Positions 4,591 to 43,443 of a stretch of 51,617 nucleotides of DNA are shown piece after piece. Under the pieces are notes generated by a model. It saw only the letters and a program-made list of their open reading frames with translations. It was not told the origin of the DNA and did not search any database. Each line of letters starts with the position of its first letter. Position 1 is the first letter of the stretch. The DNA comes from Parcubacteria group bacterium CG1_02_58_44 (GTDB lineage: Bacteria > Patescibacteriota > Patescibacteriia > SG8-24): NCBI GenBank assembly GCA_001872545.1, contig MNWN01000018.1:1-51617 (forward strand). Direction: 5' to 3'. A program made the translations under genes and the position numbers.

Positions 4591-4628
4591 TGAGGTTCCG
4601 GAACGACAGGTTTTTTCGTGACGGCTGT

Positions 4629-26362: not shown

Positions 26363-26464
26363 TGTCGCCCCGGCCTCCGAGCCGGGGCCCAGAAGCAGAA
26401 AAGAGTTGAATTGATCCTGGATCCCGGATATTGCTCACCGCATTCGCAATTCCGGGATGACAAA
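26363..26464. repeat. Dispersed palindromic repeat, third copy
   Basis: GCCCCGGC-ctccga-GCCGGGGC is followed by CCAGAAGCAG, TGGATCCCGGATATTGCT and TTCCGGGATGACAAAA, the same order as in 4281-4590 but diverged in the first palindrome. Confidence 0.8.
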
Positions 26465-27329: not shown

Positions 27330-27839
27330 ATGGACGATATCAGCAAAAAGCCAGTCGAGATCAGGCCGACTCTGCGCAGACCGGAAAGCGGCCGACAGCC
27401 TGAGTCCGGCCTTGAGCTTGAGCCGACGGCGGAAGGTGCTGCGGCAGAAAGTGAGCCGGCGGAAGAGTCAGCCGACGAGTCGGTCGGTCAGCTTCCGGCA
27501 GTGCAGACCGTTGCCCCGGCCGTAATTCCGGCGGCGGACCGCAGTCGCGACATGCTGCTGATCGAGGTCGAAGAGAAGCTCGAGGACAATCTGTGGGATG
27601 CCTATCGTGCCATGACGCCAGACCTGCGGCTGAAGTTCAAGATGGAAGGCGAGAGGATCGCCCAGGTAGTCAGGGAAGGCATCGCCACCGGTCGGGTGGT
27701 GGCCCACAACATCCTGACCATGATCGTGGAGTGGCTCGGCATGATCCCCGGAGTGAACCGTTGGTTCCTGATTCAGGAGGCCAAGATCAAGACTGACGCG
27801 CTGATAAAGCTCGGAAGAAACCGTAGCCACCAGGAATGA
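27330..27839 (+). CDS. Unknown protein coupled to the TraD/VirB4-like ATPase
   Basis: The 169-residue protein has a disordered, acidic Pro/Ala/Glu-rich N-terminal half. A folded C-terminal half (residues 72-169) contains LEDNLWDAYRAMTPDLRLKF and a hydrophobic helix region (HNILTMIVEWLGMIPGVNRW). No known family is recognised. Its stop overlaps the ATG of the ATPase gene (ATGA), so translation is coupled and the two proteins probably work together. No signal peptide is seen. Confidence 0.7.
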   Translation: MDDISKKPVEIRPTLRRPESGRQPESGLELEPTAEGAAAESEPAEESADESVGQLPAVQTVAPAVIPAADRSRDMLLIEVEEKLEDNLWDAYRAMTPDLRLKFKMEGERIAQVVREGIATGRVVAHNILTMIVEWLGMIPGVNRWFLIQEAKIKTDALIKLGRNRSHQE

Positions 27840-30391
27840 CTATGCTGCCGCTGCTTCAGGTGACAATCATGACCCCCGAACAGGAACTGGCCATGCAGGG
27901 CTTTTTCGGAAGCCCGTCTTTCTATTCCCTGTTGGCTGTCGGCGTGGTTCTGGCCGCCATAGTCGTAGCCCTGCTCATGCTGCGCTTCCGGATCAGGTCC
28001 AGATACCAGAAGGCGGCGGCCTTCAGTCGGACCGTCATGCTGGTCACCGTCCCCAAGGAGTCGGCCGAGAAGGGCGACGCCGGACAGCGCGAGAAGGCCC
28101 TGTCCGAGATTCAGGAGGACATCGCCATCATGACCGGAATCTTCTCCGCGATCGGCGGACTGAAGGCCCAGCGCGGCGGTCGGGCTGCCATCTTCGGCCG
28201 GGACGACACCATCTCCTTCGAGATCGTGGCTCAGGAAAGTGTCATCTCCTTCTACATCGTCGTGCCGGAGAGCCTGCGCGAGTTCATCGAACAGCAGGTT
28301 CAGGCCCAGTACAACCACGCGCATATCGAGATCCTTGACGACTACAACATCTTCAAGTCGCAGGGGTCGATTGCGGCCAACGATTTCTCGTTCCGAAGGC
28401 AGCTGTTCTTTCCGGTCAGGACCTTCGAGAGCATGGAGACCGATCCGCTGAACGCCATCACCAACGCCATGTCCAAGGTGGAGAAGGACGACGGGGTGGC
28501 GCTTCAGATTCTCGTCCGGTCGGCCAAGAAGGGCTGGCGGGACTTGGGACTGAAGGTGGCCAAGGAGATGCATCAGGGCAAGAACTTTAAGGAGGCATTG
28601 CATGGCGAACCGAAGCTCAAGATACTGACCGACGCCCTGAAGTCCAGCAAGTCGGCCGAGTCCGCCGCTCCGAAGAGGGACTATCAGATGTCCGAACGTG
28701 AGAGGGAGATGGTAAAGTCGATCGAAGACAAGGCCGGGCATCTTGGTCTGGACGTGAACGTCAGAGTCATCGCCTCGGCCGGCAATCCCGGCAAGGCCCA
28801 GGCTTACCTCAACAATGTCGTCGCCTCGTTCGCCCAATACAACATTCCCCAGTACGGCAACGAGCTGGTGCCGTCCGGAAAGCGTCAGTCGGCGATACTG
28901 GAGAACTTCATCTACAGGACGTTCGACGAACGGCGTCGCATGGTGATGACCGGCAGCGAGCTGGCCAGCATCTACCACCTGCCGCTGCCGTCGACCGAGA
29001 CACCCAACATCCGGTGGCTCATGGCCAGGAAGGCGCCGCCGCCCGGGAACATCCCCAAGGAGGGCATTTTTCTCGGGACCTCCGAGTACCGCGGCGTCAC
29101 CACCAAGATCTACCAGAAGCACGAGGACCGGTTTCGTCACATGTACGTCATCGGCGGTTCCGGTTCCGGTAAGTCGGAGTTCATCGCCGCCATGGCCGCG
29201 CAGGACATCAAGGCCGGCTTCGGCATAGGCGTCATCGACCCGCACGGCGACCTGGTCGAGACCATCCTGTCGTCCGTGCCCAAGGAGCGGGCCGAGGACG
29301 TGATCATCTTCGATCCGTCCGACTACGACCGTCCGCTCGGCCTGAACATGCTCGAGGCCCCGTCCAAGGAGATGCAGGACTTCGTGGTCGGCGAGATGAT
29401 CGCCATCTTCTACAAGCTGTTCCCGCCGGAGACCATGGGTCCGATGTTCGAGCACACCATGCGCAACATGATGCTGACGCTGATGGCCGAGGTCGACAAT
29501 CCGGGCACTATCGCCGAGATTCCGCGGCTGATCACCGACCCCGAGTACCAGAAGAAGTGGATCGCCAAGGTCACCGATACGGCCGTCCGTTCCTACTGGG
29601 AGAACGAGGTCGCCAAGACGTCGGACTTCCACAAGTCGGAGATGTTCGGTTACTTGACCTCCAAGGTCGGCCGGTTCGTAGAGAACGCCATGATGCGCAA
29701 CATCGTCGGCCAGACCAAGTCGGCCTTCGACTTCCGCGAGGTGATGGACCAGAAGAAGATCCTGCTGGTGAACCTGTCGAAGGGCAAGATCGGCGACATC
29801 AACGCCAACCTGCTCGGACTGATCATGGTCACCAAACTGCAGATGGCGGCCATGGCCCGAGCGGACATACCCAAGGAGGAGCGCAGCGACTTCTTCCTGT
29901 ACATCGACGAGTTCCAGAACTTTATCACCCCGTCGATCGCGACCATCCTGTCCGAGGCGCGCAAGTACCGCCTGTCGCTGACCATCGCCCATCAGTATAT
30001 CGCCCAGCTGGCGCCGAAGGGGGACACCGAGATCCGCGACGCGGTCATGGGCAACGTCGGCACCAAGCTGGTCGGACGCATCGGCATAGACGACGCTGAA
30101 TTCCTCGAGAAGGAGTTCGCACCGGTATTCACCGCCTTCGACCTGATGAACGTGGACAAGATCCACTGGAACGCCAAGATGCTGATCGACAACACCGTCT
30201 CCCGTCCGTTCGTCATGAAGTCGCCGCCGATGGTGGTCGGCAACCGGCGGCTGTCCGATGCCATCAAGCAACTGGCCCGACTGAAGTACGGCCGGGACCG
30301 GGTCATGGTCGAACAGGAGATCCTGGATCGGACGCGGATAGAGAGCATGCCGGCACCGCCGCCGGAGCAGCCCAAGCCCAGGACGGTCTAG
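27836..30391 (+). CDS. Membrane-anchored TraD/VirB4-like ATPase
   Basis: The 851-residue protein has one N-terminal membrane helix (residues 30-50). A long region with a conserved 'FEIVAQESVISFYIVVPESLREFIEQQV' style fold (in part) follows. Then comes a RecA-like motor: Walker A VIGGSGSGKSEF near residue 440, IGVIDPHGDLVE, and Walker B FFLYIDEFQNF near residue 690, followed by ARKYRLSLTIAHQYIAQL. This layout matches type IV secretion DNA-binding ATPases (TraD/VirD4/VirB4) that occur singly in CPR genomes. It could pump DNA or drive a surface structure. No other secretion genes are nearby except the overlapped partner at 27330. An in-frame ATG at 27866 is an alternative start. Confidence 0.85.
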   Translation: MTMLPLLQVTIMTPEQELAMQGFFGSPSFYSLLAVGVVLAAIVVALLMLRFRIRSRYQKAAAFSRTVMLVTVPKESAEKGDAGQREKALSEIQEDIAIMTGIFSAIGGLKAQRGGRAAIFGRDDTISFEIVAQESVISFYIVVPESLREFIEQQVQAQYNHAHIEILDDYNIFKSQGSIAANDFSFRRQLFFPVRTFESMETDPLNAITNAMSKVEKDDGVALQILVRSAKKGWRDLGLKVAKEMHQGKNFKEALHGEPKLKILTDALKSSKSAESAAPKRDYQMSEREREMVKSIEDKAGHLGLDVNVRVIASAGNPGKAQAYLNNVVASFAQYNIPQYGNELVPSGKRQSAILENFIYRTFDERRRMVMTGSELASIYHLPLPSTETPNIRWLMARKAPPPGNIPKEGIFLGTSEYRGVTTKIYQKHEDRFRHMYVIGGSGSGKSEFIAAMAAQDIKAGFGIGVIDPHGDLVETILSSVPKERAEDVIIFDPSDYDRPLGLNMLEAPSKEMQDFVVGEMIAIFYKLFPPETMGPMFEHTMRNMMLTLMAEVDNPGTIAEIPRLITDPEYQKKWIAKVTDTAVRSYWENEVAKTSDFHKSEMFGYLTSKVGRFVENAMMRNIVGQTKSAFDFREVMDQKKILLVNLSKGKIGDINANLLGLIMVTKLQMAAMARADIPKEERSDFFLYIDEFQNFITPSIATILSEARKYRLSLTIAHQYIAQLAPKGDTEIRDAVMGNVGTKLVGRIGIDDAEFLEKEFAPVFTAFDLMNVDKIHWNAKMLIDNTVSRPFVMKSPPMVVGNRRLSDAIKQLARLKYGRDRVMVEQEILDRTRIESMPAPPPEQPKPRTV

Positions 30392-30423
30392 TCGCAGAGT
30401 TTCTACCTGTCCCGCACACGCAG

Positions 30424-30449
30424 GAAGATCGCGTTTCGGCGCGATCTTT
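30424..30449 (+). terminator. Hairpin after the ATPase gene
   Basis: AAGATCGCG and CGCGATCTT pair around TTTCGG. The T run is weak (TTTG), so termination may be partial. Confidence 0.45.
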
Positions 30450-30511
30450 GCTCTAGCGCATCGTCGATCTGAGGCCAGTCTCAAGTAGGACGTTTTTCTC
30501 GAGGGGCCAAG

Positions 30512-30552
30512 AGGGGACTGCCGACTCCCCTGCCAAAAAACGGTTTTTTGGC
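30512..30552. repeat. Two adjacent hairpins
   Basis: AGGGGA...TCCCCT (30512-30531) is directly followed by the perfect GCCAAAAAA-cgg-TTTTTTGGC (30532-30552). The second could end transcription in either direction. Confidence 0.45.
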
Positions 30553-30578
30553 CCAGACCGAAGGGTTTTCGGGATGGT

Positions 30579-30607
30579 TTGACCGGGGTCGGCGTTCGTG
30601 ATAATAC
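30579..30607 (+). promoter_or_regulatory. Promoter of the conserved unknown upstream of dnaX
   Basis: TTGACC (30579-30584) is followed by GATAATAC; TAATAC (30602-30607) has 17-bp spacing. The leader would be about 55 nt. Confidence 0.45.
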
Positions 30608-30668
30608 AAAGGAGTATTAGAGGCTCTTTTCTTCGCAAATATCAAATAAAAAAGTTAGTCATATTCGT

Positions 30669-31502
30669 ATGGACGAACAAACAAAACCGAATTTCAATGC
30701 TAATTTATCCGTCGGACAGGACTTTCCGACGGACCGGCCACTGACCGACTTTCTGCAGGCTAAGGCCCAGGTCAGGCTCGATGAGCCGTCGGAAGCGGCT
30801 GTCGTCGGAACGTCCGCGGTGGAGCCGGAAGACTCGGTTCGGCAATTCGCCTCGCCGATCGACGAGCCGGAAGGGACTCTGGTCGTCATGCCTGCCGTGT
30901 CGGGTCGTCCGGAGGACAATCGGACCGTGGTCGCACTCAGGGCCCTGCGGCAGATGGAGCAGCAGCTCGCCGCCGTGATCCGCCTGCTCGGTGCTGACGG
31001 CCAGACGACGGCGGACGGAATGCCGCCCGAACCTCAGGTGTCGACTAGGCCGTCGTTCGGAAACGGCGACTGGTCTGCGGCCCCCCGTGAGGATCTCTCG
31101 ACGCTCAAGCCGATCGACGGACGGGTGGTCGAGGGCGTGTTCGACGGTCGGGGCATGGTCGGCTCGGACGGCAAGTGCTATCTCGTCCCCCCGAACTACG
31201 CCTCCAAGTCCAAGCTGGTCGAAGGCGACATGCTGAAGCTGATCATCACCCCCAAAGGCTCCTTCATCTACAAGCAGATCGGACCGATCGACCGTTCGCG
31301 ACTCATCGGTTCGCTCGGCTACGACCAGACCACCGGCGAGTACTACGCCACGTCGGACAACCGCCGATGGAACGTCATCAAGGCCAGCGTCACCTACTTC
31401 AAGGGTGAGCCGGGCGATGAGGTCGTCCTGCTGGTGCCGAAAAACGCCCCCTCGAAGTGGGCGGCGGTCGAGAATATCATCAAGCGTAGTTCGCTAGTCT
31501 GA
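30669..31502 (+). CDS. Conserved unknown protein upstream of dnaX
   Basis: The 277-residue protein has a disordered N-terminal part (1-75), a helix likely to form a coiled coil (TVVALRALRQMEQQLAAVIRLL, residues 86-107 in part) and a globular C-terminal domain (145-277). The latter reads GRVVEGVFDGRGMVGSDGK, YASKSKLVEGDMLKLIIT and GSFIYKQIGPIDR. From memory, this C-terminal domain is conserved in Parcubacteria-type genomes; its function is not known to me. The closing 'GDEVVLLVPKNAPSKWAAVENII' (in part) suggests a small beta-barrel. No membrane segment is seen. Confidence 0.75.
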   Translation: MDEQTKPNFNANLSVGQDFPTDRPLTDFLQAKAQVRLDEPSEAAVVGTSAVEPEDSVRQFASPIDEPEGTLVVMPAVSGRPEDNRTVVALRALRQMEQQLAAVIRLLGADGQTTADGMPPEPQVSTRPSFGNGDWSAAPREDLSTLKPIDGRVVEGVFDGRGMVGSDGKCYLVPPNYASKSKLVEGDMLKLIITPKGSFIYKQIGPIDRSRLIGSLGYDQTTGEYYATSDNRRWNVIKASVTYFKGEPGDEVVLLVPKNAPSKWAAVENIIKRSSLV

Positions 31503-31596
31503 GAGTATGGGCACGCCGGTCGGGCCATCTTGGTCGGTTCGTTCCGCCTTCCGTTGAGTCATGGTCGAAATTTCTAAAGCCAGACAAGTTTCTCAG

Positions 31597-33429
31597 ATGT
31601 CGTCATCCACTCTTTATCGCAAATACCGTCCTCAGGGCTGGTCAGAAGTCGCCGGACAGGAACACGTCAAGGATACGCTCGCCTTCGAGGTATCCTCCGG
31701 CCGGACGGTTCACGCCTACCTTTTTTCCGGTCCGCGCGGGGTGGGCAAGACCACGACCGCCCGTATCTTCGCCAAGGCGATCAACTGTCTGGAGCGCGAG
31801 GACGGATCCGGCGAGCCTTGCGGCCGGTGCGTGGCCTGCCTGGCGGTGACCGAGGGCGGTTCCATGGACATCATCGAGATCGACGCCGCCTCGAACCGCG
31901 GCATCGACAGCGTGCGCGACAACATCATCGACAACGCGCGCTTTTCCCCTTCGCGACTGAAGAACAAGGTCTTCATCGTGGACGAGGTGCATATGCTGAC
32001 GACCGAGGCCTTCAACGCGCTGCTGAAGACGCTCGAGGAGCCGCCGGCGAACGTCGTCTTTCTGTTGGCCACGACCGAGCTGCATAAGGTGCCGGCGACT
32101 ATCGTCTCGCGCTGTCAGAGGTTCGACTTCCGGAAGATACCGGTCGAATCGGTAGTCGATCGGCTGGTCGGCATCTCGGCGAAGGAGGAGATCGAGGTCG
32201 ATCGTGAGGTGCTGCTCGAGATCGCTCGTCGGTCCGAGGGATGCCTGCGCGATGCCGAGGGACTGCTCGGCAAGGTGCTGGCCGCGGCGGACGGCGAGAG
32301 GGTGACGATCGAGTCGGTGCGGGCGGTTCTGCCGCGTTCGGACTGGGAGACGGCCGCATCCTTCGTCGAGGCCTTGCTGGCAGGGGATACGGCAACGGCG
32401 CTGGCCACGGTCGGCGGGATGCTGGATGCGGGATCCGAGCCAGAGCATCTGGCTAACGAGGCATTGGACATCATCCGCAAGACGCTGATCGCCAAGGTAT
32501 CGGGTGACGTCAATTTTCTGCGGGCGGAACTCGACGAGAGTCGTCTGGCGCGCATTTCGTCCTGGATGGGAACGACCACAGTCGGATCGTTGGTGCGGAC
32601 TCTCGAGGTACTGCTCGAAAAACGGCGGGACATGAAGGGAAGTCCCCTTCCTCAGCTGCCGCTCGAGTTGGCTGCAGTGCTGATCTGTCAGGAGGTGAAC
32701 GGTGGTTCGGCTGCGTCTGCGGTCCTTTCGTCGTCCAATTCGGAGTTAGGTGGAACGAAGACCGACGGACGTACGGTAGCGTTGGATACGGTTGCGGCGA
32801 TGAAGCCGGCAGCGGCGAGCGGTGATGCTGGATCCGGGCCGGACGTCGTTTCACGGACTGAGATAGAGATCAAAAAGACCGAATCGAATGAAGTAGAGGC
32901 GAAGGAGGCGGGGGAATCGGAGGAGTCAGCTCTAGATAAGGAGGTGCAGGTTTCGGCACCGGAGCCTTTAGGAGAGAAGGAAGTAGTTATCGAGGCAACG
33001 GCTGTGACCGTCGAGAATGTTGTCGAGGAATCGGTTGAGGATACGGTCACGGCGATCGAGATCGGGTCGGTCAGCGCCAAGTGGGAGGAGATCGTCAAAC
33101 GGGTGTCCGAGGTCAGCCAGTCGCTGTCGCTCCTTATGGGAGCGGTCAGTCCGGTTCGGATGGATGGCAATACCGTGGAGCTGGGGTCATGCTTTCCCTT
33201 TCACCGTGATCGGCTCAATGAGCACAAGACTAGGGACGTGCTGGAGACGGCTTTTTCCGCCGTTTTGGGGCAGAAGCTGCTGGTCCGGGCCGTGACTATT
33301 GAAAGAAAACCCGAGATCGGGCATGATGATGTCGCCGAAGGGGCGATTAAGGAGCAAGTCAGCCCGGTTGAGGCCGCGCCGGCGGTCCAGAAAATCGCCG
33401 AGGCGTTCGGTGGTCGGGTCATCAGTTGA
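31597..33429 (+). CDS. dnaX: DNA polymerase III gamma/tau subunit
   Basis: The 610-residue clamp-loader subunit opens with the classic LYRKYRPQGWSEVAGQEHV. It has Walker A SGPRGVGKTTTARIFAKAINC and the four-Cys zinc module (C..., CGRCVAC). Walker B is FIVDEVHMLTTEAFNALLKTLEEPP, sensor 1 is LLATTELHKVP and the arginine finger is SRCQRF. A long acidic linker (about residues 390-500) leads to a C-terminal domain with SAKWEEIVKRV. The frame is open from an ATG at 31561, but the family normally starts at MSSSTLYRKYRPQ, so I chose 31597. No A-rich slippery site like that of E. coli is seen. Confidence 0.95.
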   Translation: MSSSTLYRKYRPQGWSEVAGQEHVKDTLAFEVSSGRTVHAYLFSGPRGVGKTTTARIFAKAINCLEREDGSGEPCGRCVACLAVTEGGSMDIIEIDAASNRGIDSVRDNIIDNARFSPSRLKNKVFIVDEVHMLTTEAFNALLKTLEEPPANVVFLLATTELHKVPATIVSRCQRFDFRKIPVESVVDRLVGISAKEEIEVDREVLLEIARRSEGCLRDAEGLLGKVLAAADGERVTIESVRAVLPRSDWETAASFVEALLAGDTATALATVGGMLDAGSEPEHLANEALDIIRKTLIAKVSGDVNFLRAELDESRLARISSWMGTTTVGSLVRTLEVLLEKRRDMKGSPLPQLPLELAAVLICQEVNGGSAASAVLSSSNSELGGTKTDGRTVALDTVAAMKPAAASGDAGSGPDVVSRTEIEIKKTESNEVEAKEAGESEESALDKEVQVSAPEPLGEKEVVIEATAVTVENVVEESVEDTVTAIEIGSVSAKWEEIVKRVSEVSQSLSLLMGAVSPVRMDGNTVELGSCFPFHRDRLNEHKTRDVLETAFSAVLGQKLLVRAVTIERKPEIGHDDVAEGAIKEQVSPVEAAPAVQKIAEAFGGRVIS

Positions 33430-33455: not shown

Positions 33456-33529
33456 TGCGGGATCGTCTAATGGTAGGACAACAGACTCTGAATCTGTTTA
33501 TCTAGGTTCGAATCCTAGTCCCGCAGCCA
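33456..33529 (+). tRNA. tRNA-Gln (anticodon CTG)
   Basis: The acceptor stem TGCGGGA/TCCCGCA, the D arm with TCTAATGGTAGGA, the anticodon stem ACAGA/TCTGT with loop CTCTGAA, and the T arm CTAGG-TTCGAAT-CCTAG are all present. CCA is encoded. It marks the start of the accessory-looking stretch to the right. A copy of its 3' end is not seen in the window. Confidence 0.95.
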
Positions 33530-34071: not shown

Positions 34072-34126
34072 TCACTTTTTGCGGGCAAATTGGTGTAGCT
34101 ACTTGAATTGCGTTTCAAGAGTTTCT

Positions 34127-34183
34127 AGCACGCCCAAGACGGGCAGCTAACAAGAGCAGGTCTCACTGAGGCCTGCTCTTTGC
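34127..34183 (+). repeat. Repeated 3' tail module, copy A
   Basis: CACGCCCAAGACGGGCAGCT is followed by AACAAGAGCAGGTCTC and a terminator hairpin (AAGAGCAGGTC / GCCTGCTCTT). Twenty-six bases around GGGCAGCTAACAAGAGCAGG are identical in copy B. Confidence 0.8.
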
Positions 34184-34233
34184 GAAGACCAAACCCTCGG
34201 CATGAGACCAGGGAGTGTCACTTAGCTCCCTTA

Positions 34234-36132
34234 TTACAACCCAAAGCCGCGGGGAAACAGAGGTGTACTACCATCGGACGTTTGTCCATCAACAGTCATC
34301 GGTAGCTGTTCGATCGTGCGCGGCCACGGCAGCGGTAGCCTGCCGGTGAAGGGGGATGCACCGAAAAGCGCGTCCGCCACGCCCCTTCCTTCGCTTCCGG
34401 GAAGCCACGCTGCGACTGTCGCGTCCCACTTTGAAATTTCGTCCGTCACGATGAGTGGCCTGCCGGAGACGATGATCACGACGACCCTCTTGCTCGTTTT
34501 CTGGAGGCTTGCGATTGCCGCAAGGTCGATATCATCGAGGCGAGGCTGCACATTGTCTCCCCATCCTTCCGCATAAGGCTTTTCGCCGACAATAGCGATT
34601 CCAACATCGGCGAGGTCCTTGTTCGGGAAGTCCCCATTCAGATCGTACTCCACCGTCGTCTGCATGCTGACGGCGGCCCGGATCCCCGCGAGAATGGACG
34701 TCGCTCCAGGTAGCCAGTTCCCGTCGATGCCTTGCCATTCGACTGTCCATCCGCCCGTCTGCCGGCCCACGTTGTCGGCGGCGCTCCCGGCCACTCTTAT
34801 ATGGCGTATATCGGACGACAGGGGCAATGTACGTTTCTGGTTACGGAGCAGGACCAACGAACACGCAACCGTTTCACGGGCCAGTGCGCGATGTTCCGTT
34901 GAACCAACGGTTTCAAGACCAGACCTCGATGCGCCATTGTCGTCGAATAGACCCATCGAGAATTTCGCGCGGAGAATGCGGCGAACGGCGTCATCAACAC
35001 GTGCTTGAGGGATGTCACCGCGAATGACTGCCTTATGCATGTCCGAGACGAAACCCTTGTAATCAAAAGGGAGCATGGCCATATCGATGCCGGCGTTGAT
35101 GGCCGAAACGGTCGAATCATAGCTGTTCCAGGAAATCGCGTACACGCCATACCAGTCGGACACCACGAATCCACGGAAGCCAAGTTCGTCCTTGAGCACG
35201 TCTGTCAGAATATACTCGCTCGCCGAAATGTCGCCTCCTCCCCAGGAGGCTAGTCCGGCCATGACACTCAATATCCCCGCATCGATCGCCGTGCGATACG
35301 GAGGCAGATAGACATCGGTCAGTGTTTCGCTGTCGTCGTTAGATACGACGCCCTGGTCGATACGAAAATCGTCGTTGTCCGATGTTCCCCAGGTCATGCT
35401 TCCCAGTCCGACGTAGTGCTTTGCGGTCGCGAGAACGTCAATCCGTGCGCCTTGTCCGGCGGCCTGCTGTAAGCCCCGTATGTAGGCAGCACCAAGCGTG
35501 CCGGCGCGCATGGGATCGTCTGAAAACGCCTCATAGACCCGTCCCCATCGAATGTCCATCGGAAGATCGAACGTCGGCGAAAAATGCCACCGGATGCCCA
35601 TGGCGGCGGATTCCTCGGCGATCGCGCGCGCGACACGCTCTGTTAGTACGGGATCGTTTGCCGCTCCGAGACCGATGAGATGCGGAAACAGCGTCGCACC
35701 AAGCACGTTCCCATTTCCGTGATTTGCGTCAGTGCCATAGAGTATCGGAATGCCAAGCCGCGTACCGCTGGCCGCGTCGGTGAACTCCGCGACCATATTC
35801 TTCCACCCCTGCGGCGTATTATCGTCCGGTTTTCCACCCGCACCGCTCAGGACTGCGCCGATTCCATAAGCAGCGACGTCTTTTGTGTTCTTAAGACTGT
35901 TCTTTTCCACGAGCGCCATTTGTCCAATCTTCTCCTCGAGTGTCATGTAGCCAAGAAGGTCCTCTACACGCGTTTCGATCGGCAACGACGCATCACGATA
36001 TAGTGCTTCATTTGGTGGGACAGGCGGTGGAGAGGGTGGCGTGAAAAATATCGCCAAAAGCACCGATCCTGTTATCAGGATCATTCCCAACACGGCAAAC
36101 GCAACTCTTTGTCTCCAAGGAGAGGTGAACAT
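34234..36132 (-). CDS. Glycoside hydrolase family 3 beta-glucosidase, membrane-anchored
   Basis: The 632-residue protein has one N-terminal membrane helix (residues 10-31), a Pro-rich linker and the two GH3 domains of exo-beta-glucosidases. The nucleophile is Asp326 in GFVVSDWYGV; substrate-site residues are in LATAKHYVGLG and GTDANHGNGN. The acid/base Glu is likely Glu522 in GEKPYAEGWGDN, the same place as in plant and bacterial ExoP enzymes. It should release glucose from beta-glucans outside the cell. GH3 enzymes of this size are unusual in reduced CPR genomes. It lies in the block after the tRNA and is read against its neighbours, both consistent with gain by transfer. Confidence 0.92.
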   Translation of the reverse strand: MFTSPWRQRVAFAVLGMILITGSVLLAIFFTPPSPPPVPPNEALYRDASLPIETRVEDLLGYMTLEEKIGQMALVEKNSLKNTKDVAAYGIGAVLSGAGGKPDDNTPQGWKNMVAEFTDAASGTRLGIPILYGTDANHGNGNVLGATLFPHLIGLGAANDPVLTERVARAIAEESAAMGIRWHFSPTFDLPMDIRWGRVYEAFSDDPMRAGTLGAAYIRGLQQAAGQGARIDVLATAKHYVGLGSMTWGTSDNDDFRIDQGVVSNDDSETLTDVYLPPYRTAIDAGILSVMAGLASWGGGDISASEYILTDVLKDELGFRGFVVSDWYGVYAISWNSYDSTVSAINAGIDMAMLPFDYKGFVSDMHKAVIRGDIPQARVDDAVRRILRAKFSMGLFDDNGASRSGLETVGSTEHRALARETVACSLVLLRNQKRTLPLSSDIRHIRVAGSAADNVGRQTGGWTVEWQGIDGNWLPGATSILAGIRAAVSMQTTVEYDLNGDFPNKDLADVGIAIVGEKPYAEGWGDNVQPRLDDIDLAAIASLQKTSKRVVVIIVSGRPLIVTDEISKWDATVAAWLPGSEGRGVADALFGASPFTGRLPLPWPRTIEQLPMTVDGQTSDGSTPLFPRGFGL

Positions 36133-36279
36133 ATAGGGTTACTTTAATAGAAGCGTAGCACGTTTAGTTTATTCTTCGTCTTCGTAACTTTTAAAGCGCT
36201 CAAGGCAAAAAGTTACGAAAATCCGAGCCATCAGGCTCGAATTTTAGGCCATAAAACGGAACCGTTTTTTGTGGGCCGT

Positions 36280-36522
36280 TTATCTCAGAATAATTCGTAC
36301 GATCGCGATCAATATGCAGGAACCCAAGAGTGCCACCAGGAAACTGTATATATTGAAGCCACCAACGCCGCTTTTACCCAGGACACTCATTAGGTATCCG
36401 CCGATAAGTGCGCCGATCATGCCGACGATAACGTCGCGAATCAGTCCGCCTTGTGACCCCATGATCATCGATGCCACCCAGCCGACCAGGCCACCGAAGA
36501 ATATCCAAATGATGATTCCCAT
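36280..36522 (-). CDS. GlsB/YeaQ/YmgE-type stress membrane protein
   Basis: The 80-residue protein has three short membrane helices with Gly-rich faces: MGIIIWIFFGGLVGWVASMI, GLIRDVIVGMIGALIGGYLM and a last hydrophobic helix. This is the pattern of the transglycosylase-associated (YeaQ/GlsB) family. These proteins are induced by envelope or salt stress, with unknown mechanism. It lies 4 bp after the upstream YggT-like gene, so both share a transcript. Confidence 0.85.
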   Translation of the reverse strand: MGIIIWIFFGGLVGWVASMIMGSQGGLIRDVIVGMIGALIGGYLMSVLGKSGVGGFNIYSFLVALLGSCILIAIVRIILR

Positions 36523-36526
36523 AGTG

Positions 36527-36910
36527 TCATTTCTTTATCTGCGCGTTTAATTTCGCGGCAGCTTCCGGCGTCGATACTGTCTTTCCGATCAGGATTAGTT
36601 TGATTATTCCTACAGCGACGATCCAATAGACGACCATCGCAAGAAGTGTGGTCCATTCAAAGATGTTGCTAGCAACCGATGAAATACGGAAGACTGCAAG
36701 AAAAGGAGCAGTGAAGATATAGGTGACACCGTAAATAAAAACGCTAAAACCAGCGGATGGATTTGCCCCCATCAATTTTAGTACAAAACGGAAGGCAAGA
36801 AGGACTTCCATTGCGCCGAGTAGGTACCATACGATTTGTGTGCCGCGATACAATGGCTTGGTGCTAGGCGAGTCAGCTGAATTCATTTGGTGTCTCGGGC
36901 AACTATGCAT
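36527..36910 (-). CDS. YggT-like membrane protein
   Basis: The 127-residue protein has about three to four membrane helices. QIVWYLLGAMEVLLAFRFVLK and GANPSAGFSVFIYGVTYIFTAPF in part follow the YggT pattern ('LL..Rf.l...g.np...f...iy..T.pfl.P'). YggT proteins are linked to membrane stress and cell-shape factors in other bacteria. A promoter (36930-36957) lies just upstream. The ATG at 36886 (MNSADSP) is an equally good start. Confidence 0.65.
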   Translation of the reverse strand: MHSCPRHQMNSADSPSTKPLYRGTQIVWYLLGAMEVLLAFRFVLKLMGANPSAGFSVFIYGVTYIFTAPFLAVFRISSVASNIFEWTTLLAMVVYWIVAVGIIKLILIGKTVSTPEAAAKLNAQIKK

Positions 36911-36929
36911 TATTTGAGAGAATTCCCTA

Positions 36930-36957
36930 AGTATACACTAAAAAATGGATTTGTCAG
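36930..36957 (-). promoter_or_regulatory. Promoter of the YggT/GlsB pair
   Basis: On the minus strand CTGACA (36957-36952) and TATACT (36935-36930) are separated by 16 bp. The start is near 36923. Confidence 0.55.
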
Positions 36958-37033
36958 TCTTTGTTGGCTGCTAGGCTTAAAATGATTCAAATGGTATACG
37001 TTGGCTACGTTAACTGGTCAGTTGGTGCGTGTT

Positions 37034-37144
37034 ATGGAACTTCGGTTCGACTCTGGAGTCGACGATATCTCAGTGTCTAATTTAGTTTTGTCTAGGCTTA
37101 ACGGTCGGAATGACCGCAGTTTGATAAACCAGCTCAGAAAATAG
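37034..37144 (+). CDS. Possible 36-residue small protein or gene remnant
   Basis: An ATG at 37034 opens a 36-codon frame (MELRFDSGVDDISV...LINQLRK) ending 16 bp before copy B of the 3' tail module. The other copies all follow the stop codon of a longer gene, so by position this may be a real small gene or the end of a decayed one. No family is recognised, and no Shine-Dalgarno sequence is seen. Confidence 0.3.
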   Translation: MELRFDSGVDDISVSNLVLSRLNGRNDRSLINQLRK

Positions 37145-37160
37145 CGTATTCATTTTAATT

Positions 37161-37222
37161 GTCCCGAACGCATTCAAAACGGGCAGCTAACAAGAGCAGG
37201 TCTCTCCGAGGCCTGTTTCTGC
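37161..37222 (+). repeat. Repeated 3' tail module, copy B
   Basis: CCGAACGCATTCAAAACGGG is followed by GGGCAGCTAACAAGAGCAGG and the hairpin CAGGTCTC-tcc-GAGGCCTG, then TTTCTGC. Confidence 0.8.
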
Positions 37223-37263
37223 AATACTATGATTTTTAGCGTTTTTTTTGTCTGCAAAACCTC

Positions 37264-37397
37264 GGGCCAAGGCCCGGGATTCCTTATGATCCCTTGTCCT
37301 CATGGATTTTTTCGGATGAGACATATTTGGATGCGGACATGAGGACAAGGGACAAATGAAGTATCTCTAGTAAAGATACCCCAGGCCTTGCCCCGGG
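37264..37397. repeat. Nested inverted-repeat element
   Basis: CCCTTGTCCTCATG (37291-37304) is exactly inverted as CATGAGGACAAGGG (37338-37351). Outside them GGGCCAAGGCCCGGG and CCCCAGGCCTTGCCCCGGGG are imperfect inverts, and GTATCT/AGATAC forms a small hairpin within the right half. There is no gene in 37223-37521. It resembles a palindromic mobile element without coding capacity. Confidence 0.6.
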
Positions 37398-37536
37398 GAG
37401 TGTTGTTTGGAGGAGTGGTTTGGGGTCATAGGGTGAAGGCTATAGTTTTTTGTCTCCGTAAAGTACGGGCAAACTATGTGATTTTGTGGCACCCTGATAA
37501 CATAGTTTCGTTTAACGGTCTATGCTGTTTGTCACT

Positions 37537-39415
37537 ATGGGCGCCGAACACGGTCTACAACGCGAATCCAAATCGGAGGAGGAGGTCGGAGCGGAGTCCA
37601 TCATGACTCCTGAACAGAGACGAATGTCCGAGGAACGGGCCGAATTTGATGTTCAGGAACAGCCTCCTTGGGAGGATTTTGAGGAGAATTCAGTTGACGA
37701 GAATTACGAACGTCGGAAGCCGACAGTCGAAGAGAAGGAACGGATGGATCGTACCATGGAGGAGCTTGGTCAACTCATGAGTCAGTCCGATGTCCGCTGG
37801 CAGCTCGATGGGGCCATCAACATTCCGCTCTTATGGCGGAGAATACATTGGTATCCACAAGGACGTCGACATCTCAGTCGAGCCGGATGATCTATCAGCT
37901 CTCGAGGCACATTTGGTCGGTCGGGGATACGGTCTGTTCGAGTCGTTGCCTCGCGACGGCGATGATTCGTCTCGTCGCCTGCGGCGTGTCTCTGCTGATC
38001 GAGTATTGGGCAGCGAATTGAGAGAAAAATTGGCAGTCAATAAGATCGACGGACGGGGCAAGATTATCCCCGGAGGTGACCTAAGCTCCATTGATCTTCA
38101 TGTCATCGGGCGCGATTCGGACGGTCGGGCGTTAGGTAAGAAAGGTACTCCGCTGCCCGAACGTTGGATGACCCCCGAGCGGATTACGGTTGTTGGCGGT
38201 AAGGAAGTTAACATTAGTCATCCGGCTCGCACCCTGTACTACAAATTGCACCAGGGACGCAACTACGATTTTACCGATCTTGATCGGTTGGTAGAGACTG
38301 GAGCGTTATCCGAACAGGACCTTTTCGAGGTCAAGCAAGTGTTGGCTGAAGAGCGTCAGGCCGATTATTCCATGATTGATCGTGCCTTGGCACCGATAGC
38401 CGACCGGTTGGCCGAAGCATCTGACGCAGGGGAGGTTTTTGCGGCGTTTGCCAATTCGCCGACATTCATTGAACACATGACGCCGGAAAAGGAAGAAACT
38501 CTTCGTAAGATAGCCGAGCGACTAGCGATGGCTGAGGATCGTACGCCTGCCGGATTGACCAAAGAAATGATTGCGTTCGCCGGATTGGACCGGCAGCATG
38601 ATCAGCGTCAAATGTGTATCGAACGTCTGATCGGGAAACTGAATGAAAATAAAAAAATGGTGCAGGCACGAAAGGAGATCGGTGAGGTCGGAGGTGAGAA
38701 GAAGACTTTAAGGATTGAAGGTTTTACTGCTGGCCTAGAGAATTTGACTGCCAGTGTTTTGAATAGGCTGCAGGATCGGGAGCATGTACTGCTGGCGATC
38801 AGCGGCAAATCCGGTTCTGGTAAGTCAGAACTGGCCCGGCAGCTCCGTGACCAGTTGGGCGAACAGGGTGTGAAAGCGACTGTGGTCAGCAGCGATGACT
38901 TCTACGACAGTGAAGACCCTCGTCGTCCGCAGGACAAGCATCTTGACCACGAGAGATTGCACGGTCTTTTTCGTGACCTTCAGGCGGGTAAGGCTTCGGG
39001 TAAATATGAACCGTCGTCGGTGATTATTATTGAGGGCCTGCAGACTATCGATGACAAGGTGGTCGGTCAGACACCGGATATGCGTGCGCATGTGGAGACC
39101 GACTTTAGTCAGCGCATGGGACGAAGGTTGGTGCGTGACGAACGGATTGGGTATCGTAATGCCGGTGTTTCGCTCGATATGCTCGCCAAAGTGGCGGTCA
39201 GCAATCCCGAGTTGATTCGAAAGTTCGAGACCGATGTTGATACGGACCATTGCGATTTCGTTATAGAAAACGATCACAAAGAGCCTCATGAACCAGAGAT
39301 TTTTATTCAGAACAATGAGCTTGTTTTTGTTATTGATGGTCAGATGAAGGAATCCCGTCGGCTCAGCCAAGACGAAAAGATGGCAATACTGGCGCTGGGT
39401 TTTGATGAAAGATAA
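37537..39415 (+). pseudogene. Nucleotidyltransferase-P-loop kinase fusion, interrupted by a single-base frameshift
   Basis: Two overlapping frames form one protein. Frame 1 (from ATG 37537 or 37522) gives an acidic N-terminus and ends in the start of a nucleotidyltransferase fold (RWQLDGAINIPL). Skipping one T at about 37831 continues with YGGEYIGIHKDVDISVEPDD, where DVD are the expected metal-binding Asp residues. A helical middle follows, then a uridine-kinase-like domain: Walker A ISGKSGSGKSELARQL, VVSSDDFYDSEDP, IIIEGLQTIDD and RRLVRDERIGYRNAG. The joined product would have about 626 residues. The frameshift may be a mutation, a sequencing error or a +1 recoding event. Substrates are unknown. 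Copy C of the tail module follows. Confidence 0.75.
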
Positions 39416-39424
39416 GGTGGCATC

Positions 39425-39488
39425 GTTCCGAACGCGTCCAAGACGGGCAGTCACGACAGAAAATCGCCCACAACAGGCGGTTTTTTGC
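39425..39488 (+). repeat. Repeated 3' tail module, copy C
   Basis: CCGAACGCGTCCAAGACGGG is conserved, but the hairpin part is different (AATCGCCCACAACAGGCGGTTTTTT), so the conserved head can be joined to an unrelated terminator. Confidence 0.75.
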
Positions 39489-39547
39489 TTGGTTAGGTTA
39501 GTAGCGTATTATCTAGATAAATAATCTTTGACTCTCTTCCGTTAACT

Positions 39548-41515
39548 ATGGAAAGTCATTTTTCTCCAGAACGTTTCGGTCTTGATTCCGCTGATCCACA
39601 GAAAGAATCAGCGGAACTGCCGAAATTGGATACCAGTCCGGAAGTGTCCGTCGTTCCAGAAACCGGACCAGAGCGAGAGCTGCGGGAGCATTGGGAACTA
39701 ATAGATAGGCAAATTGATTCCGTCATCGGTTACGTTAGCCTAGTCGAGGATATCGAGGGTGCGGAGCTGCACGGCGAATCTGCCGACGAGGCGCTCGAAC
39801 GGGGCTTTGACAAAATAATGAAAGATCAGGGGTGGCAGCGATTACCGGACGAACTTAGCGCTCTTGAAAAGGAAAATGATGAGTTGCTCGAAGAATTTTG
39901 TGAGGCACCGGAGTCCGAGTCCGAACCTGATCGGACAGAAGAGGACAGTCAACGCCTTAAGGAAGATTTGCTCAATAGGGCCAAGAAGAACGGGGACAAA
40001 ATTAGACGACTGAGAAAGGATCCGAACCTGCTGTTCGCGAACGAGATGGCCGGCCTGAAGAATGACCTGCTGAAGAAACGCAAAGAGGTCGACGGTCTGC
40101 GCGAACAGAAAATTAACGATTGGCCGTTCTGGGAGGACAGTCATCCGGAATTTGGTCCGGACGATGCCGATCCAGACTTCGGGACCTTTGCTGTACGCCT
40201 TAATGTGGGTCCGGGTAAGTTGAGAAAAAGCCTCGGTGTCAGCTTCGGAGGAACGCCGATATTCGTGGTAGGTGCGGCCGATAGACATCAGGAAGGCGTT
40301 GCCGTGCATGAGACAATTCATACGATGATGCACGACCATTACAGGAACGTCACCCTGCTACTGTTGCAGAAATTTGACTTGGCGTTGGCCTCTGTTGAGA
40401 AGCTACATATTAGTGATGCTGAGCGGTTTCGGGAGAAAATTGGCACATTGGAGGATGTTTTCGCCGCCAGCAAAGACGAGCTGGTGGCAAACGTGCCCTA
40501 CCTAGAAAAAAAGCTGCTTGACCCGCTGGTCGAACCGAAGTTCAATGGCAACCTCATGGAGTCCGGTAACGTTTACGGCGAGGACTCTTTTTTCGACGAG
40601 AGCTACTCGACTGCCGCTATCGAGCTTAAGGGCTATATCGGCACTCTTAGGCATCATCGAGATAAGATTCTAGAGGACCTAGAAACCGCCGAAGGTGGGG
40701 AGGTTCTCGAGATAGCGCGCTCTCTGCAGGCACTTGTTGGTCACTGCAGCCGTCTGGAGCGGGAGATCGTTAAGATGCAGCGCGGAATGGAGCGCGGTAT
40801 CGTTGCCGCCGAACTGATGGGGTCCGAGATGCAGGGCCGGATGATGGCCTACTTTATGGTCAGCGATCCTGGCCAGTACAAGAATTCGCTGCGTTTTCTG
40901 GAGCGGCAGCCCGGTGGCGAAGGCGTGCGCGAAAAGGGGCCGCAGATAGACGGGATGGTCGCGTTTCAGAAGACCGGTCTCGTCTTGCCGGAACTTCTTG
41001 AGGCGGTATCCTCGTCGGGTGGTGACGATTGGACAGAACGCATGCGGAACAAATATGCGGCATGGACGCCGGAGCAGCTTCTTGGCAGATGCCTGTTTAC
41101 CGGTGTGGCTAGCGAGAAGATGCCGACCGATAAGTTCGGCGAGCAGCTGCGTCGACAGGTCGATTTCCTATGGGCGATGGACATACTGGTACCACCGGAA
41201 AAACTTGCCGAGGTGAAACGGGAATACTGTCGGAATAAGCTAGACCGCGTTTTGGCTAGAGATGAATGGGTGGATTCTTTCCGTGATTTCTTGTCCGGGG
41301 AACACAATCAAGACATGCGAATTGAGGCAGCCGAGCAAATCAGTCAAGGAATCAGAGAATTCTTAAAAACCGGAGAATACATCAGTATTGGTCCTGCGTA
41401 CTGGAGACTGAGGGGAATGGTCAAAAAAGCAGTGATGCTCGGCCTTGTCGAAGAATTGACGCTATCAGAACAGGAAATGGATCGTCTACCTCCGTATTTT
41501 ATTCATATCGACTGA
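39548..41515 (+). CDS. Putative zinc metalloprotease (HExxH), unknown family
   Basis: The 655-residue soluble protein has a disordered acidic N-terminus (1-45) and coiled-coil segments (about 105-185). Near residue 256 it has VAVHETIHTMMHDHY, a good HExxH zinc-protease motif with another His four residues later. A possible third ligand, Glu, lies in AASKDELVANVPYLEKK about 60 residues on. The C-terminal 300 residues are helical without known motifs. It has no signal peptide, so it would act in the cytoplasm or leave by a non-classical route. The N-terminal style resembles the genes at 37537, 43488 and 48805. The tail module copy D follows. Confidence 0.65.
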   Translation: MESHFSPERFGLDSADPQKESAELPKLDTSPEVSVVPETGPERELREHWELIDRQIDSVIGYVSLVEDIEGAELHGESADEALERGFDKIMKDQGWQRLPDELSALEKENDELLEEFCEAPESESEPDRTEEDSQRLKEDLLNRAKKNGDKIRRLRKDPNLLFANEMAGLKNDLLKKRKEVDGLREQKINDWPFWEDSHPEFGPDDADPDFGTFAVRLNVGPGKLRKSLGVSFGGTPIFVVGAADRHQEGVAVHETIHTMMHDHYRNVTLLLLQKFDLALASVEKLHISDAERFREKIGTLEDVFAASKDELVANVPYLEKKLLDPLVEPKFNGNLMESGNVYGEDSFFDESYSTAAIELKGYIGTLRHHRDKILEDLETAEGGEVLEIARSLQALVGHCSRLEREIVKMQRGMERGIVAAELMGSEMQGRMMAYFMVSDPGQYKNSLRFLERQPGGEGVREKGPQIDGMVAFQKTGLVLPELLEAVSSSGGDDWTERMRNKYAAWTPEQLLGRCLFTGVASEKMPTDKFGEQLRRQVDFLWAMDILVPPEKLAEVKREYCRNKLDRVLARDEWVDSFRDFLSGEHNQDMRIEAAEQISQGIREFLKTGEYISIGPAYWRLRGMVKKAVMLGLVEELTLSEQEMDRLPPYFIHID

Positions 41516-41521
41516 ATTGCT

Positions 41522-41585
41522 GGTTACGAACGCGTCCAAGATGGGCATTCAACAAAAACAGGCCTCTCCGAGGCCTGTTTTTGTC
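41522..41585 (+). repeat. Repeated 3' tail module, copy D
   Basis: ACGAACGCGTCCAAGATGGG is followed by CAACAAAAACAGGCCTC-tcc-GAGGCCTGTTTTTG, a perfect terminator with flanking A and T runs. Confidence 0.85.
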
Positions 41586-41657: not shown

Positions 41658-41775
41658 AATAAATAGCCAGCTCGCCTTCGTGACTCCTTGGAAAGGAGGG
41701 ATTTTAGAACCAAGTAAACCCACCGTTCATCGTGTTATTTTTATCATGCGGTCCGCTGTCCATAATCCTACATCC

Positions 41776-43443
41776 ATGAAAAAAACTGTAATCTTACTAT
41801 CCTTGCTTTTAATGGTTTTGGCCGTTACTCCCAGTTTGGCGGCGACATCGATCGCCGAAAGGGTCAGGGGAAAGATCGTCTTGCAGGTTGAAAGCCATGG
41901 GGAGGCTCATTATGTCTCTCCGGACAATCTTCGGAGATACTATTTGGGCCGACCTCAGGATGCTTTTGACATAATGCGGACCATGGGATTGGGAATAACC
42001 GACGCCAATCTGGCCAGAATTCCCAAGGACACCGACAGCTGGACCGGAGAAACCCCTTTCATAAATCTCATAAGGGGCAAGATTTTGCTTCAGGTCGAGC
42101 AGCATGGCGAGGCTTGGTACGTCTATCCGGACAACGGCAAGAGATACTTTTTGGGACGTCCCAGCGACGCCTTTAACATCATGAGCAGTTTGGGGCTCGG
42201 TATCTCGACCAGAGATCTTTCGACTATTGCCGTGGGGACGATGGCTGCAAGTGAGACAGAAGAGACAAATGGGAACGGTCAACCGGTACCAGCTGACGAA
42301 GAAGATGCGTCGGGTGACGTCGGCAGCGGCGATACAATTGTCAACACAAACACTGAAGATCCAAATTCTGTTGTCGTAAGCAGCGTTTCCGCCCTGATGA
42401 CTGCCATCGAAAACGCCAACAACGGCAGCAAGAAGACGATTCTGATTGAAGACGGAACCTACACGCTAGGCAATATGCTCTGGGTTTCGGCGGACGGGGT
42501 TACGGTGAGAGGCCGTTCGGGAAACCGCGAGGCGGTTATCCTGCAGGGCGACGGGATGACCGGCAGCGTTTCGCACATCTTTAATGTCGCCGGAGACGAT
42601 TTTACCGTCCGTGATCTGACCCTAAGGAGGGTTGCCAATCATGCAATCCAACTGCAGGTAAACGTCGACGGTTTTACCGTCGATAATGCCCACTTCTTGG
42701 ACACGGGCGAGCAGATGCTGAAGGTCGCCTATGATGCAGGGAACATGTCGGCAAGTTCCGATGGCGGCTTGGTCGAGAACAGTCTGTTCGAATATAGCGC
42801 CGGGCGCGGGCCGCAGTACTATATCGGTGGGGTCGACGCGCACAACGCCAAGAATTGGATTGTCCGTGACAACGTCTTCAAGAACATCAAGAGTCCTAGC
42901 GACGACATCGCCGAGTTTGCCATCCATTTTTGGTCTGAGTCGGCGAATACCCTAGTCGAAAGAAACACGATCGTGAACTGCGACCGGGGAATCGGCTTTG
43001 GTCTCGGCGATCGCGGTCATGTCGGCGGGACCATCCGCAACAACATGATCTACCATGACGGCTCGGAGGGATTCGCCGACGTTCAGATCGGACTTGAGGA
43101 CGCCAGAAATTCGCAGGTCTACAACAATACTATTTTCATGGCCAACAGCTATCAGAATGCCATCGAGTATCGCTTCGAAAGCACGACGGGGGTGCAGATC
43201 TACAACAACTTGACCAACCGGGCCATCACTGCCCGTGACGGAGCCTCAGGAACAGTCGCGAGCAACATCACCAATGCCCAGGCCGGTTGGTTCGTCTCCC
43301 CGTCGTCGGGAAATCTCCACTTGAGCAGCTCCGTCTCTTCGGTCGTAGATCAGGGGCGAAACATCTCCGGATTAACCAACGATTTCGACGGTGAGTTACG
43401 GCCGAGGGGGAGTGGAATAGATGTCGGTGCAGACGAGCTTTAG
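41776..43443 (+). CDS. Exported right-handed beta-helix protein with N-terminal surface repeats
   Basis: The 555-residue product has a signal peptide (MKKTVILLSLLLMVLAVTPSLAA). Two copies of a 55-residue domain follow (GKIVLQVESHGEAHYVSPDN..YYLGRPQDAFDIMRTMGLGI and GKILLQVEQHGEAWYVYPDN..YFLGRPSDAFNIMSSLGLGI), a module of Parcubacteria exported proteins. After a linker comes a pectate-lyase-like beta-helix with repeated 'V.N..F......IV.N.I' turns (FTVRDLTLRRVANHAIQLQ, WIVRDNVFKNI, TLVERNTIVNCDRGIGFG, SQVYNNTIFMAN). The end DFDGELRPRGSGIDVGADEL is common in choice-of-anchor polysaccharide-binding proteins. A sugar-chain lyase or binder at the cell surface is likely. I chose ATG 41776 because of the signal peptide. 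Confidence 0.85.
   Translation: MKKTVILLSLLLMVLAVTPSLAATSIAERVRGKIVLQVESHGEAHYVSPDNLRRYYLGRPQDAFDIMRTMGLGITDANLARIPKDTDSWTGETPFINLIRGKILLQVEQHGEAWYVYPDNGKRYFLGRPSDAFNIMSSLGLGISTRDLSTIAVGTMAASETEETNGNGQPVPADEEDASGDVGSGDTIVNTNTEDPNSVVVSSVSALMTAIENANNGSKKTILIEDGTYTLGNMLWVSADGVTVRGRSGNREAVILQGDGMTGSVSHIFNVAGDDFTVRDLTLRRVANHAIQLQVNVDGFTVDNAHFLDTGEQMLKVAYDAGNMSASSDGGLVENSLFEYSAGRGPQYYIGGVDAHNAKNWIVRDNVFKNIKSPSDDIAEFAIHFWSESANTLVERNTIVNCDRGIGFGLGDRGHVGGTIRNNMIYHDGSEGFADVQIGLEDARNSQVYNNTIFMANSYQNAIEYRFESTTGVQIYNNLTNRAITARDGASGTVASNITNAQAGWFVSPSSGNLHLSSSVSSVVDQGRNISGLTNDFDGELRPRGSGIDVGADEL

What the first reader, a model, noticed from the sequence alone, without database searches (positions are those of the whole stretch)
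34127..41585. Four copies of a conserved 3' tail module give the accessory block a cassette-like look
Copies at 34127, 37161, 39425 and 41522 share a head close to CCGAACGCGTCCAAGACGGG followed by GCAGCTAACAA and a terminator. Three of them follow the stop codons of unrelated genes (Cys-rich exported protein, nucleotidyltransferase-kinase, HExxH protein); the fourth follows a 36-codon frame. The head is conserved even where the hairpin differs (copy C), so it is not simply terminator sequence similarity. This would fit a recombination or capture system that attaches a common tail to genes, or an RNA tag at the 3' end of these messages.
Basis: partly seen in the sequence, partly recalled or inferred. 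Interest (0 to 1): 0.75.

Follow-up and report, generated by a model that had tools for sequence, protein, structure and literature searches.

The report
Short sites bounding exchangeable gene cassettes
In a group of tiny, uncultured bacteria (Ca. Uhrbacteria), a conserved 31-letter DNA site sits just after unrelated accessory genes, and comparing two genomes shows that a whole gene was inserted precisely at such a site, which points to a cassette-swapping system that is not an integron.

Summary
Four copies of a 31-bp head (consensus GTTCCGAACGCGTCCAAGACGGGCAGCCAAC) lie at 34121, 37161, 39425 and 41523, all on the + strand. In the window's own genome they occur only here. Among 381 genomes of the class, full heads occur only in the same family (six genomes; a degenerate one in a seventh).

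Flanks reassort at the heads. The HExxH gene between heads C and D recurs in a congener with 96% identity at fourfold-degenerate sites, against 39-45% in three backbone genes upstream of the array. The homologous block ends inside a head on both sides. In the congener it sits at a different place, inside a tRNA-Gln island. The congener's third head is the empty site: the window's left flank of C plus right flank of D aligns across it without a break. The terminator after a head travels with the downstream unit, so head plus terminator is not one inherited tail.

Best reading: the head is a recombination site and the block is a small array of mobile gene cassettes, integron-like in architecture. 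It fails the integron definition (no attC boxes in order, no IntI) and no canonical dif was found. The enzyme is unknown; Xer is the best candidate by presence. An RNA-tag role is not excluded, but structure lacks covariation.

The parts
34121..34151 (+). head A (GTTTCTAGCACGCCCAAGACGGGCAGCTAAC), 49 nt after the stop of the exported 134-aa gene
   Evidence: 26.9 bits, E 1.4e-6
34150..34181 (+). hairpin/terminator right of head A, homologous to those right of B, D and G001 c1
37161..37191 (+). head B, 16 nt after the stop of a 36-codon frame (37034-37144)
   Evidence: 28.4 bits
37190..37221 (+). hairpin/terminator right of head B (left end of the NTase-kinase unit)
37522..39415 (+). nucleotidyltransferase-kinase cassette gene, B to C; split in two frames (37522-37890 and 37790-39415)
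39425..39455 (+). head C, 9 nt after the NTase-kinase stop; left border of the exchanged unit
   Evidence: 37.0 bits
39456..39487 (+). different hairpin/terminator right of head C; shared with G001 a1, so it belongs to the HExxH cassette
39548..41515 (+). HExxH gene (655 aa), cargo of the exchanged cassette
   Evidence: 95.4% DNA identity with G001, 96.3% at fourfold-degenerate sites
41523..41553 (+). head D, 7 nt after the HExxH stop; right border of the exchanged unit
   Evidence: 30.8 bits
41552..41584 (+). hairpin/terminator right of head D, homologous to that right of the empty site G001 c1
33456..33529 (+). tRNA-Gln(CTG) after dnaX; the array locus starts here in G000, G001, G004 and G006

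Best explanation
The head is a ~31-bp DNA recombination site and the block is a small array of mobile gene cassettes. Each cassette runs from the middle of one head to the middle of the next: right half of a head, an insulating terminator, usually one accessory gene, then the left half of the next head within ~50 nt of the stop codon. A circular or linear donor carrying one head recombines with a resident head, inserts its gene and leaves a head on both sides. Shown: the sequence conservation, the restriction to short arrays, the flank reassortment at heads, the HExxH unit bounded by heads in two genomes at different places, and the empty site. Inferred: that a site-specific recombinase does it, that a circle is the donor, and which enzyme. 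The host's single Xer-type tyrosine recombinase is the best candidate by presence; an integrase supplied in trans is the alternative.
For: (1) The head is conserved across genera (11 of 31 positions invariant in 13 copies) while flanks differ, and it forms short arrays: 4 in G000, 3 in G001, 3 plus a degenerate one in G005, 2 in G007. (2) The HExxH unit is 95.4% identical over window 39418-41547 against L030 8310-10431. Most 60-bp windows inside are at 0.93 or more (lowest 0.87 in the gene, 0.65 in the terminator next to head C) and fall to 0.35-0.55 outside both heads. Fourfold-degenerate identity is 96.3%, against 39-45% for three genes left of the array, 39% for a gene to its right, and 71% for the lyase-like gene next to D. 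(3) Discordance: C and G001 c1 share the left flank, D and b1 the left; C and a1 share the right, D and c1 the right; none of these pairs shares both. (4) Empty site: window left-of-C joined to right-of-D aligns without a break to G001 c1 (kinase 3' remnant, head, same hairpin). (5) In G001 the unit lies inside a tRNA-Gln-bounded island, in G000 outside any such duplication, so the cassette moved independently of the island. (6) The HExxH protein occurs in 2 of 381 class genomes. (7) Heads fill ~1.3% of the 33.5-43.4 kb block, so both breakpoints landing in heads by chance is about 2e-4 (my estimate).
Against: Only one clean exchange, in two genomes, is documented. No recombinase gene is linked to any array; tyrosine and serine recombinases beyond Xer do not track the heads, and in the window's own genome the only Phage_integrase match is a 32-residue fragment. 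The dyad symmetry of the head is weak (8 of 15 positions, shuffle fraction 0.12). Heads 5c and 7a do not follow a same-strand gene. TspO precedes the head in G004 but has none at the same locus in G009. G001 has a scaffold gap (10516-10523) 78 nt right of head b1.
Confidence: 0.6

Rival explanations
1. Repeat-mediated homologous or illegitimate recombination: the head has another role (for example a 3'-UTR element) and merely served as short homology through which a transferred HExxH gene entered, with natural transformation as the likely route.
For: No dedicated recombinase tracks the heads. D and c1 share head plus hairpin (~60 bp), which gives somewhat longer homology than the head alone.
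Against: Identity shared by recombining heads is about 20-31 bp, short for RecA-type exchange on both sides (general knowledge). Breakpoints fall in heads on both sides in two different contexts.
Confidence: 0.18
2. RNA 3'-UTR tag or signal: the head is a conserved transcript-end element between stop codon and terminator (stability, binding of an RNA-binding protein, or the 3' end of an sRNA).
For: Most heads lie 5-75 nt after a stop codon and are followed within ~40 nt by a hairpin, often with a T-run; orientation follows the upstream gene where there is one.
Against: No Rfam match; no covariation for either candidate stem; heads absent from the rest of the genome and from most relatives; the terminator segregates with the downstream gene; heads 5c and 7a have no upstream same-strand gene.
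Confidence: 0.12
3. The head is the lineage's chromosomal dif site or a pdif-like copy, and the units are Xer-exploiting elements integrated at dif, each insertion duplicating the site.
For: A 31-bp imperfect palindrome centred on CAA; a single XerA/C/D-type recombinase encoded intact in nine of the ten family genomes (three of them typed); no canonical dif found in the family; several genomes have a single head.
Against: No GC-skew sign change at the heads; no head in G003, G008 and G009, which have Xer; no resemblance to XerC/XerD arms.
Confidence: 0.08

Closest known systems
Integron gene-cassette arrays (attC/IntI), including CALINs
   Same: Tandem, mostly one-gene units in one orientation, each ending in a recombination site just after the stop codon; no linked integrase, as in CALINs (PMC9668308).
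   Different: The 31-bp site lacks RYYYAAC...GTTRRRY boxes in the attC order, exchange occurs inside the head upstream of the hairpin, cassettes carry a 5' terminator, and no integron integrase was found.
dif/pdif modules of Acinetobacter and IMEX-type Xer elements
   Same: Short sites of similar length flank modules of one to a few genes that move between replicons; the enzyme would be the host's own Xer (PMC6449649).
   Different: Sequence unrelated to dif, all sites in the same orientation, chromosomal array beside tRNA-Gln, no terminus position shown.
tRNA-targeted integrative islands
   Same: The array begins directly after tRNA-Gln, which has an attR-like 17-bp duplication in G001 and an abutting large serine recombinase in G007.
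   Different: Heads are not tRNA 3' ends, and the HExxH unit moved independently of the island.

Membership tests
Integron cassette (attC) | R'' RYYYAAC upstream and R' GTTRRRY downstream bounding a foldable site | tested here: not met
   the RYYYAAC test is met at head D only; GTTRRRY lies downstream of three other heads (C, a1, 7a); no head has both
Integron cassette (attC) | exchange junction at the 3' end of the site, so the site's hairpin stays with the upstream gene | tested here: not met
   the hairpin segregates with the downstream unit; the junction is inside the head
Integron | integron integrase IntI (TIGR02249 above cut-off) | tested here: not met
   seven tyrosine recombinases of the family score 52-122 bits against a cut-off of 265; one search lists all detected in 10 genomes. 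IntI on a missing contig or in trans is not excluded
Integron-like cassette behaviour | units bounded by sites inserted and exchanged as discrete blocks | tested here: met
   (one cassette, two genomes)
dif/pdif module | 28-bp XerC/XerD site (11-6-11) resembling dif | tested here: not met
   the dif pattern with up to 3 mismatches does not hit any head and has only two 3-mismatch hits in 10 genomes
dif | location at the replication terminus (GC-skew switch) | tested here: not met
   skew positive on both sides of the arrays in G000 and G001; fragmented assemblies limit this
dif/pdif module | recombination catalysed by host Xer | not testable with these tools
   only presence shown: one full-length Xer-type protein in nine of ten family genomes
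Structured RNA element | match to a known RNA family or covarying pairs | tested here: not met
   Rfam; no covariation beyond shuffles

The most novel reading that the evidence does not exclude
A distinct gene-cassette system of Patescibacteria: 31-bp sites, neither attC nor dif, that let a site-specific recombinase (host Xer or an unlinked enzyme) insert and shuffle insulated gene cassettes at a tRNA-Gln hotspot and elsewhere.
Probability: 0.35. Interest if true: 0.85.

Novelty: new variant of a known kind. Interest (0 to 1): 0.62.

Why it matters
How ultra-small, probably host-dependent bacteria with ~1 Mb genomes acquire and shuffle accessory genes is poorly known, and the searches of the open-access paper library found no paper on integron integrases in this radiation, on mobile elements in Uhrbacteria, or on dif in this radiation beyond one incidental mention. 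A short, defined site with an empty/occupied pair gives a direct, testable entry: clone two heads, supply the Xer protein, look for exchange. The site also serves as a search key for the mobile gene pool of this family.

Tried and rejected
Rfam at gathering and permissive thresholds: only the tRNA. RNA hairpin: two alternative stems fit the consensus, neither covaries. Integron attC: box order and IntI tests fail. dif: no terminus position and no canonical dif. Linked serine or tyrosine recombinase: none tracks the heads. Viral, plasmid and phage collections: no head and no HExxH relative. Diversity-generating retroelement: considered and set aside because only ~31 nt is shared and upstream coding sequence is not; no reverse-transcriptase search was run. 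Head as a tRNA-Gln 3' end relic: shares GCAGCCA, but T-arm spacing does not fit. Defence islands: PADLOC gave only a weak P-loop match.

Full report
What is there. The window (G000:C29, 51.6 kb, GC 0.57; relatives carrying the same site are titled Candidatus Uhrbacteria or unclassified Patescibacteria) holds four + strand copies of a 31-nt head at 34121, 37161, 39425 and 41523. The consensus from 13 copies is GTTCCGAACGCGTCCAAGACGGGCAGCCAAC, with 11 invariant columns. A, B, C and D follow stop codons by 49, 16, 9 and 7 nt; B follows only a 36-codon frame. In the own genome there are no other copies.

Distribution. A sequence model of the head over 381 genomes of the class finds full copies only in the same family: G000 (4), G001 (3), G002 (1), G004 (1), G005 (3) and G007 (2, one weak). 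Three genomes of other families gave partial matches of 18-19 positions at 17-18 bits, which I treat as chance. With laxer settings a degenerate second copy appears 44 nt after one G005 head, and a half-decayed copy in G006, 35 nt after an M14-type peptidase gene and ~1.2 kb after tRNA-Gln. A 23-base degenerate pattern over 84,980 species genomes found six records, all of this group: MGFG01000020 (Uhrbacteria RIFOXYC2_FULL_47_19), JACQSM010000076, JAFGIV010000004, JAHFIW010000011 and JAHFIW010000030, JAHJAU010000064. Viral, plasmid and phage collections gave nothing.

Upstream genes are unrelated: an exported Cys-rich protein (A), NTase-kinase (C), HExxH protein (D), a 207-aa P-loop kinase (G001 a1), an M16-type peptidase (G002), TspO (G004), a DUF6624 protein (G005a), a 222-aa unknown (G005b), an M14-type peptidase (G006, named by eye) and a different HExxH-containing protein (G007b). 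Exceptions are head 5c and its neighbour 5c', between two minus-strand genes, and 7a, whose left neighbour is a divergent gene.

The decisive comparison is G000 against its congener G001. Backbone genes left of the array are 79-93% identical in protein, but synonymous sites are saturated (fourfold-degenerate identity 39-45%; GC3 0.74-0.88 against 0.41-0.45). Between heads C and D, however, 2.1 kb is 95.4% identical, fourfold sites 96.3%, GC3 0.58 in both, dN/dS about 0.42. The block begins in head C and ends in head D: 60-bp windows drop to 0.35-0.55 outside. The HExxH protein is found in no other genome of 381. This is a recent horizontal arrival in at least one of the two.

Its location differs. 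In G001 it follows the 207-aa kinase (head a1) inside a segment bounded by tRNA-Gln and a 17-bp copy of the tRNA 3' end (TCCTAGTCCCGCAGCCA at ~12848), after which sequence homologous to that directly following the tRNA in G000 resumes. In G000 it follows the NTase-kinase. G001 retains only about the last 45 residues of that kinase, directly followed by head c1 and by the same hairpin that lies to the right of D in G000. Joining the window's left flank of C to its right flank of D gives a sequence that aligns without interruption to G001 c1. So c1 is the unoccupied site and C-HExxH-D the occupied one.

Strong left-flank pairs are C-c1 and D-b1; strong right-flank pairs are A/B/D/c1, C-a1 and 5b-5c' (the 5c-5c' pair is an artefact of the two lying 44 nt apart; a few scores near the chance limit are ignored). 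No other pair shares both sides. This is what crossing over inside the head predicts, and it separates head from hairpin: the terminator right of C is part of the HExxH cassette (shared with a1), while the hairpin right of D belongs to what followed the kinase. The exchange must lie between head position 4 (A in D/b1, C in most others) and about position 26.

Mechanism. I favour site-specific recombination. Shown: conserved site, array organisation, exchange at the site, empty/occupied pair. Inferred: the enzyme and the donor form. Tyrosine recombinases in the family are one Xer-type protein per genome (full length in nine of ten; the window's own genome shows only a 32-residue fragment near tRNA-Glu) plus sporadic integrases in G001, G003, G004 and G007. 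Serine recombinases occur in G001, G007 and G009 only. Head-bearing G002 and G005 have Xer alone, so Xer, or an enzyme acting in trans, is the candidate. The head's dyad (CGTC CAA GACG with GTT/AAC ends) is suggestive but weak.

Against integron membership: the RYYYAAC and GTTRRRY boxes are not present together at any head, the junction lies upstream of the hairpin, and no recombinase reaches the integron-integrase cut-off. Against dif: no GC-skew switch at the arrays, no head in three Xer-bearing genomes, no similarity to canonical dif. Against a plain RNA tag: no Rfam match, no covariation, and the terminator does not co-segregate with the head. A secondary role in the transcript is still possible because most heads sit between stop codon and terminator.

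Limits. One cassette in two genomes carries the exchange argument; G001 has a scaffold gap (10516-10523) 78 nt right of head b1, although a1-b1 and the c1 region are contiguous; the named genomes are MAGs; G004 has TspO followed by a head where G009 has TspO at the same place without one, so a head can lie after a gene that may be vertically inherited. The ~2e-4 coincidence figure is a simple area estimate of mine.

Noticed in passing
window 37522-39415: The NTase-kinase gene is split in two overlapping frames (122-aa and 541-aa ORFs); four relatives match both ORFs as consecutive parts, so the window copy carries a frameshift or a sequencing error.
   Followed up: yes
L030 7334-12870 (G001): About 5.5 kb between tRNA-Gln and a 17-bp copy of the tRNA 3' end looks like an integrated island; it contains a scaffold gap at 10516-10523 flanked by near-identical ~75-bp repeats.
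   Followed up: partly
L142 612-2153 (G007): A large serine recombinase gene whose 3' end overlaps tRNA-Gln(CTG) downstream of dnaX, suggesting that this tRNA is a general integration hotspot in the family.
   Followed up: no
L049 5837-6127 (G000:C23): tRNA-Glu(CTC) is abutted by a short tyrosine-recombinase remnant, apparently a decayed tRNA island; no intact Xer gene was found in this 95%-complete assembly.
   Followed up: no
window 41680-43443 and L141 10628-11746: Exported proteins of different function (a lyase-like and an M14-type peptidase, both named by eye) share an N-terminal repeat of the type LQVE.HGEA.YV.P...RYYLGRP.DAF.IM..GLGI.
   Followed up: no
window 4281-4608 and 26379-26464: Dispersed repeats (TTCCGGGATGACA, CGTCCCGGACCTGATCCGGGACCC) occur in two spots of the window, unrelated to the heads.
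   Followed up: no
window 27836-33429 against L030 1715-7311: Two members of one genus differ enormously at third codon positions (GC3 0.74-0.88 against 0.41-0.45, fourfold identity ~40%) although proteins are 79-93% identical.
   Followed up: partly
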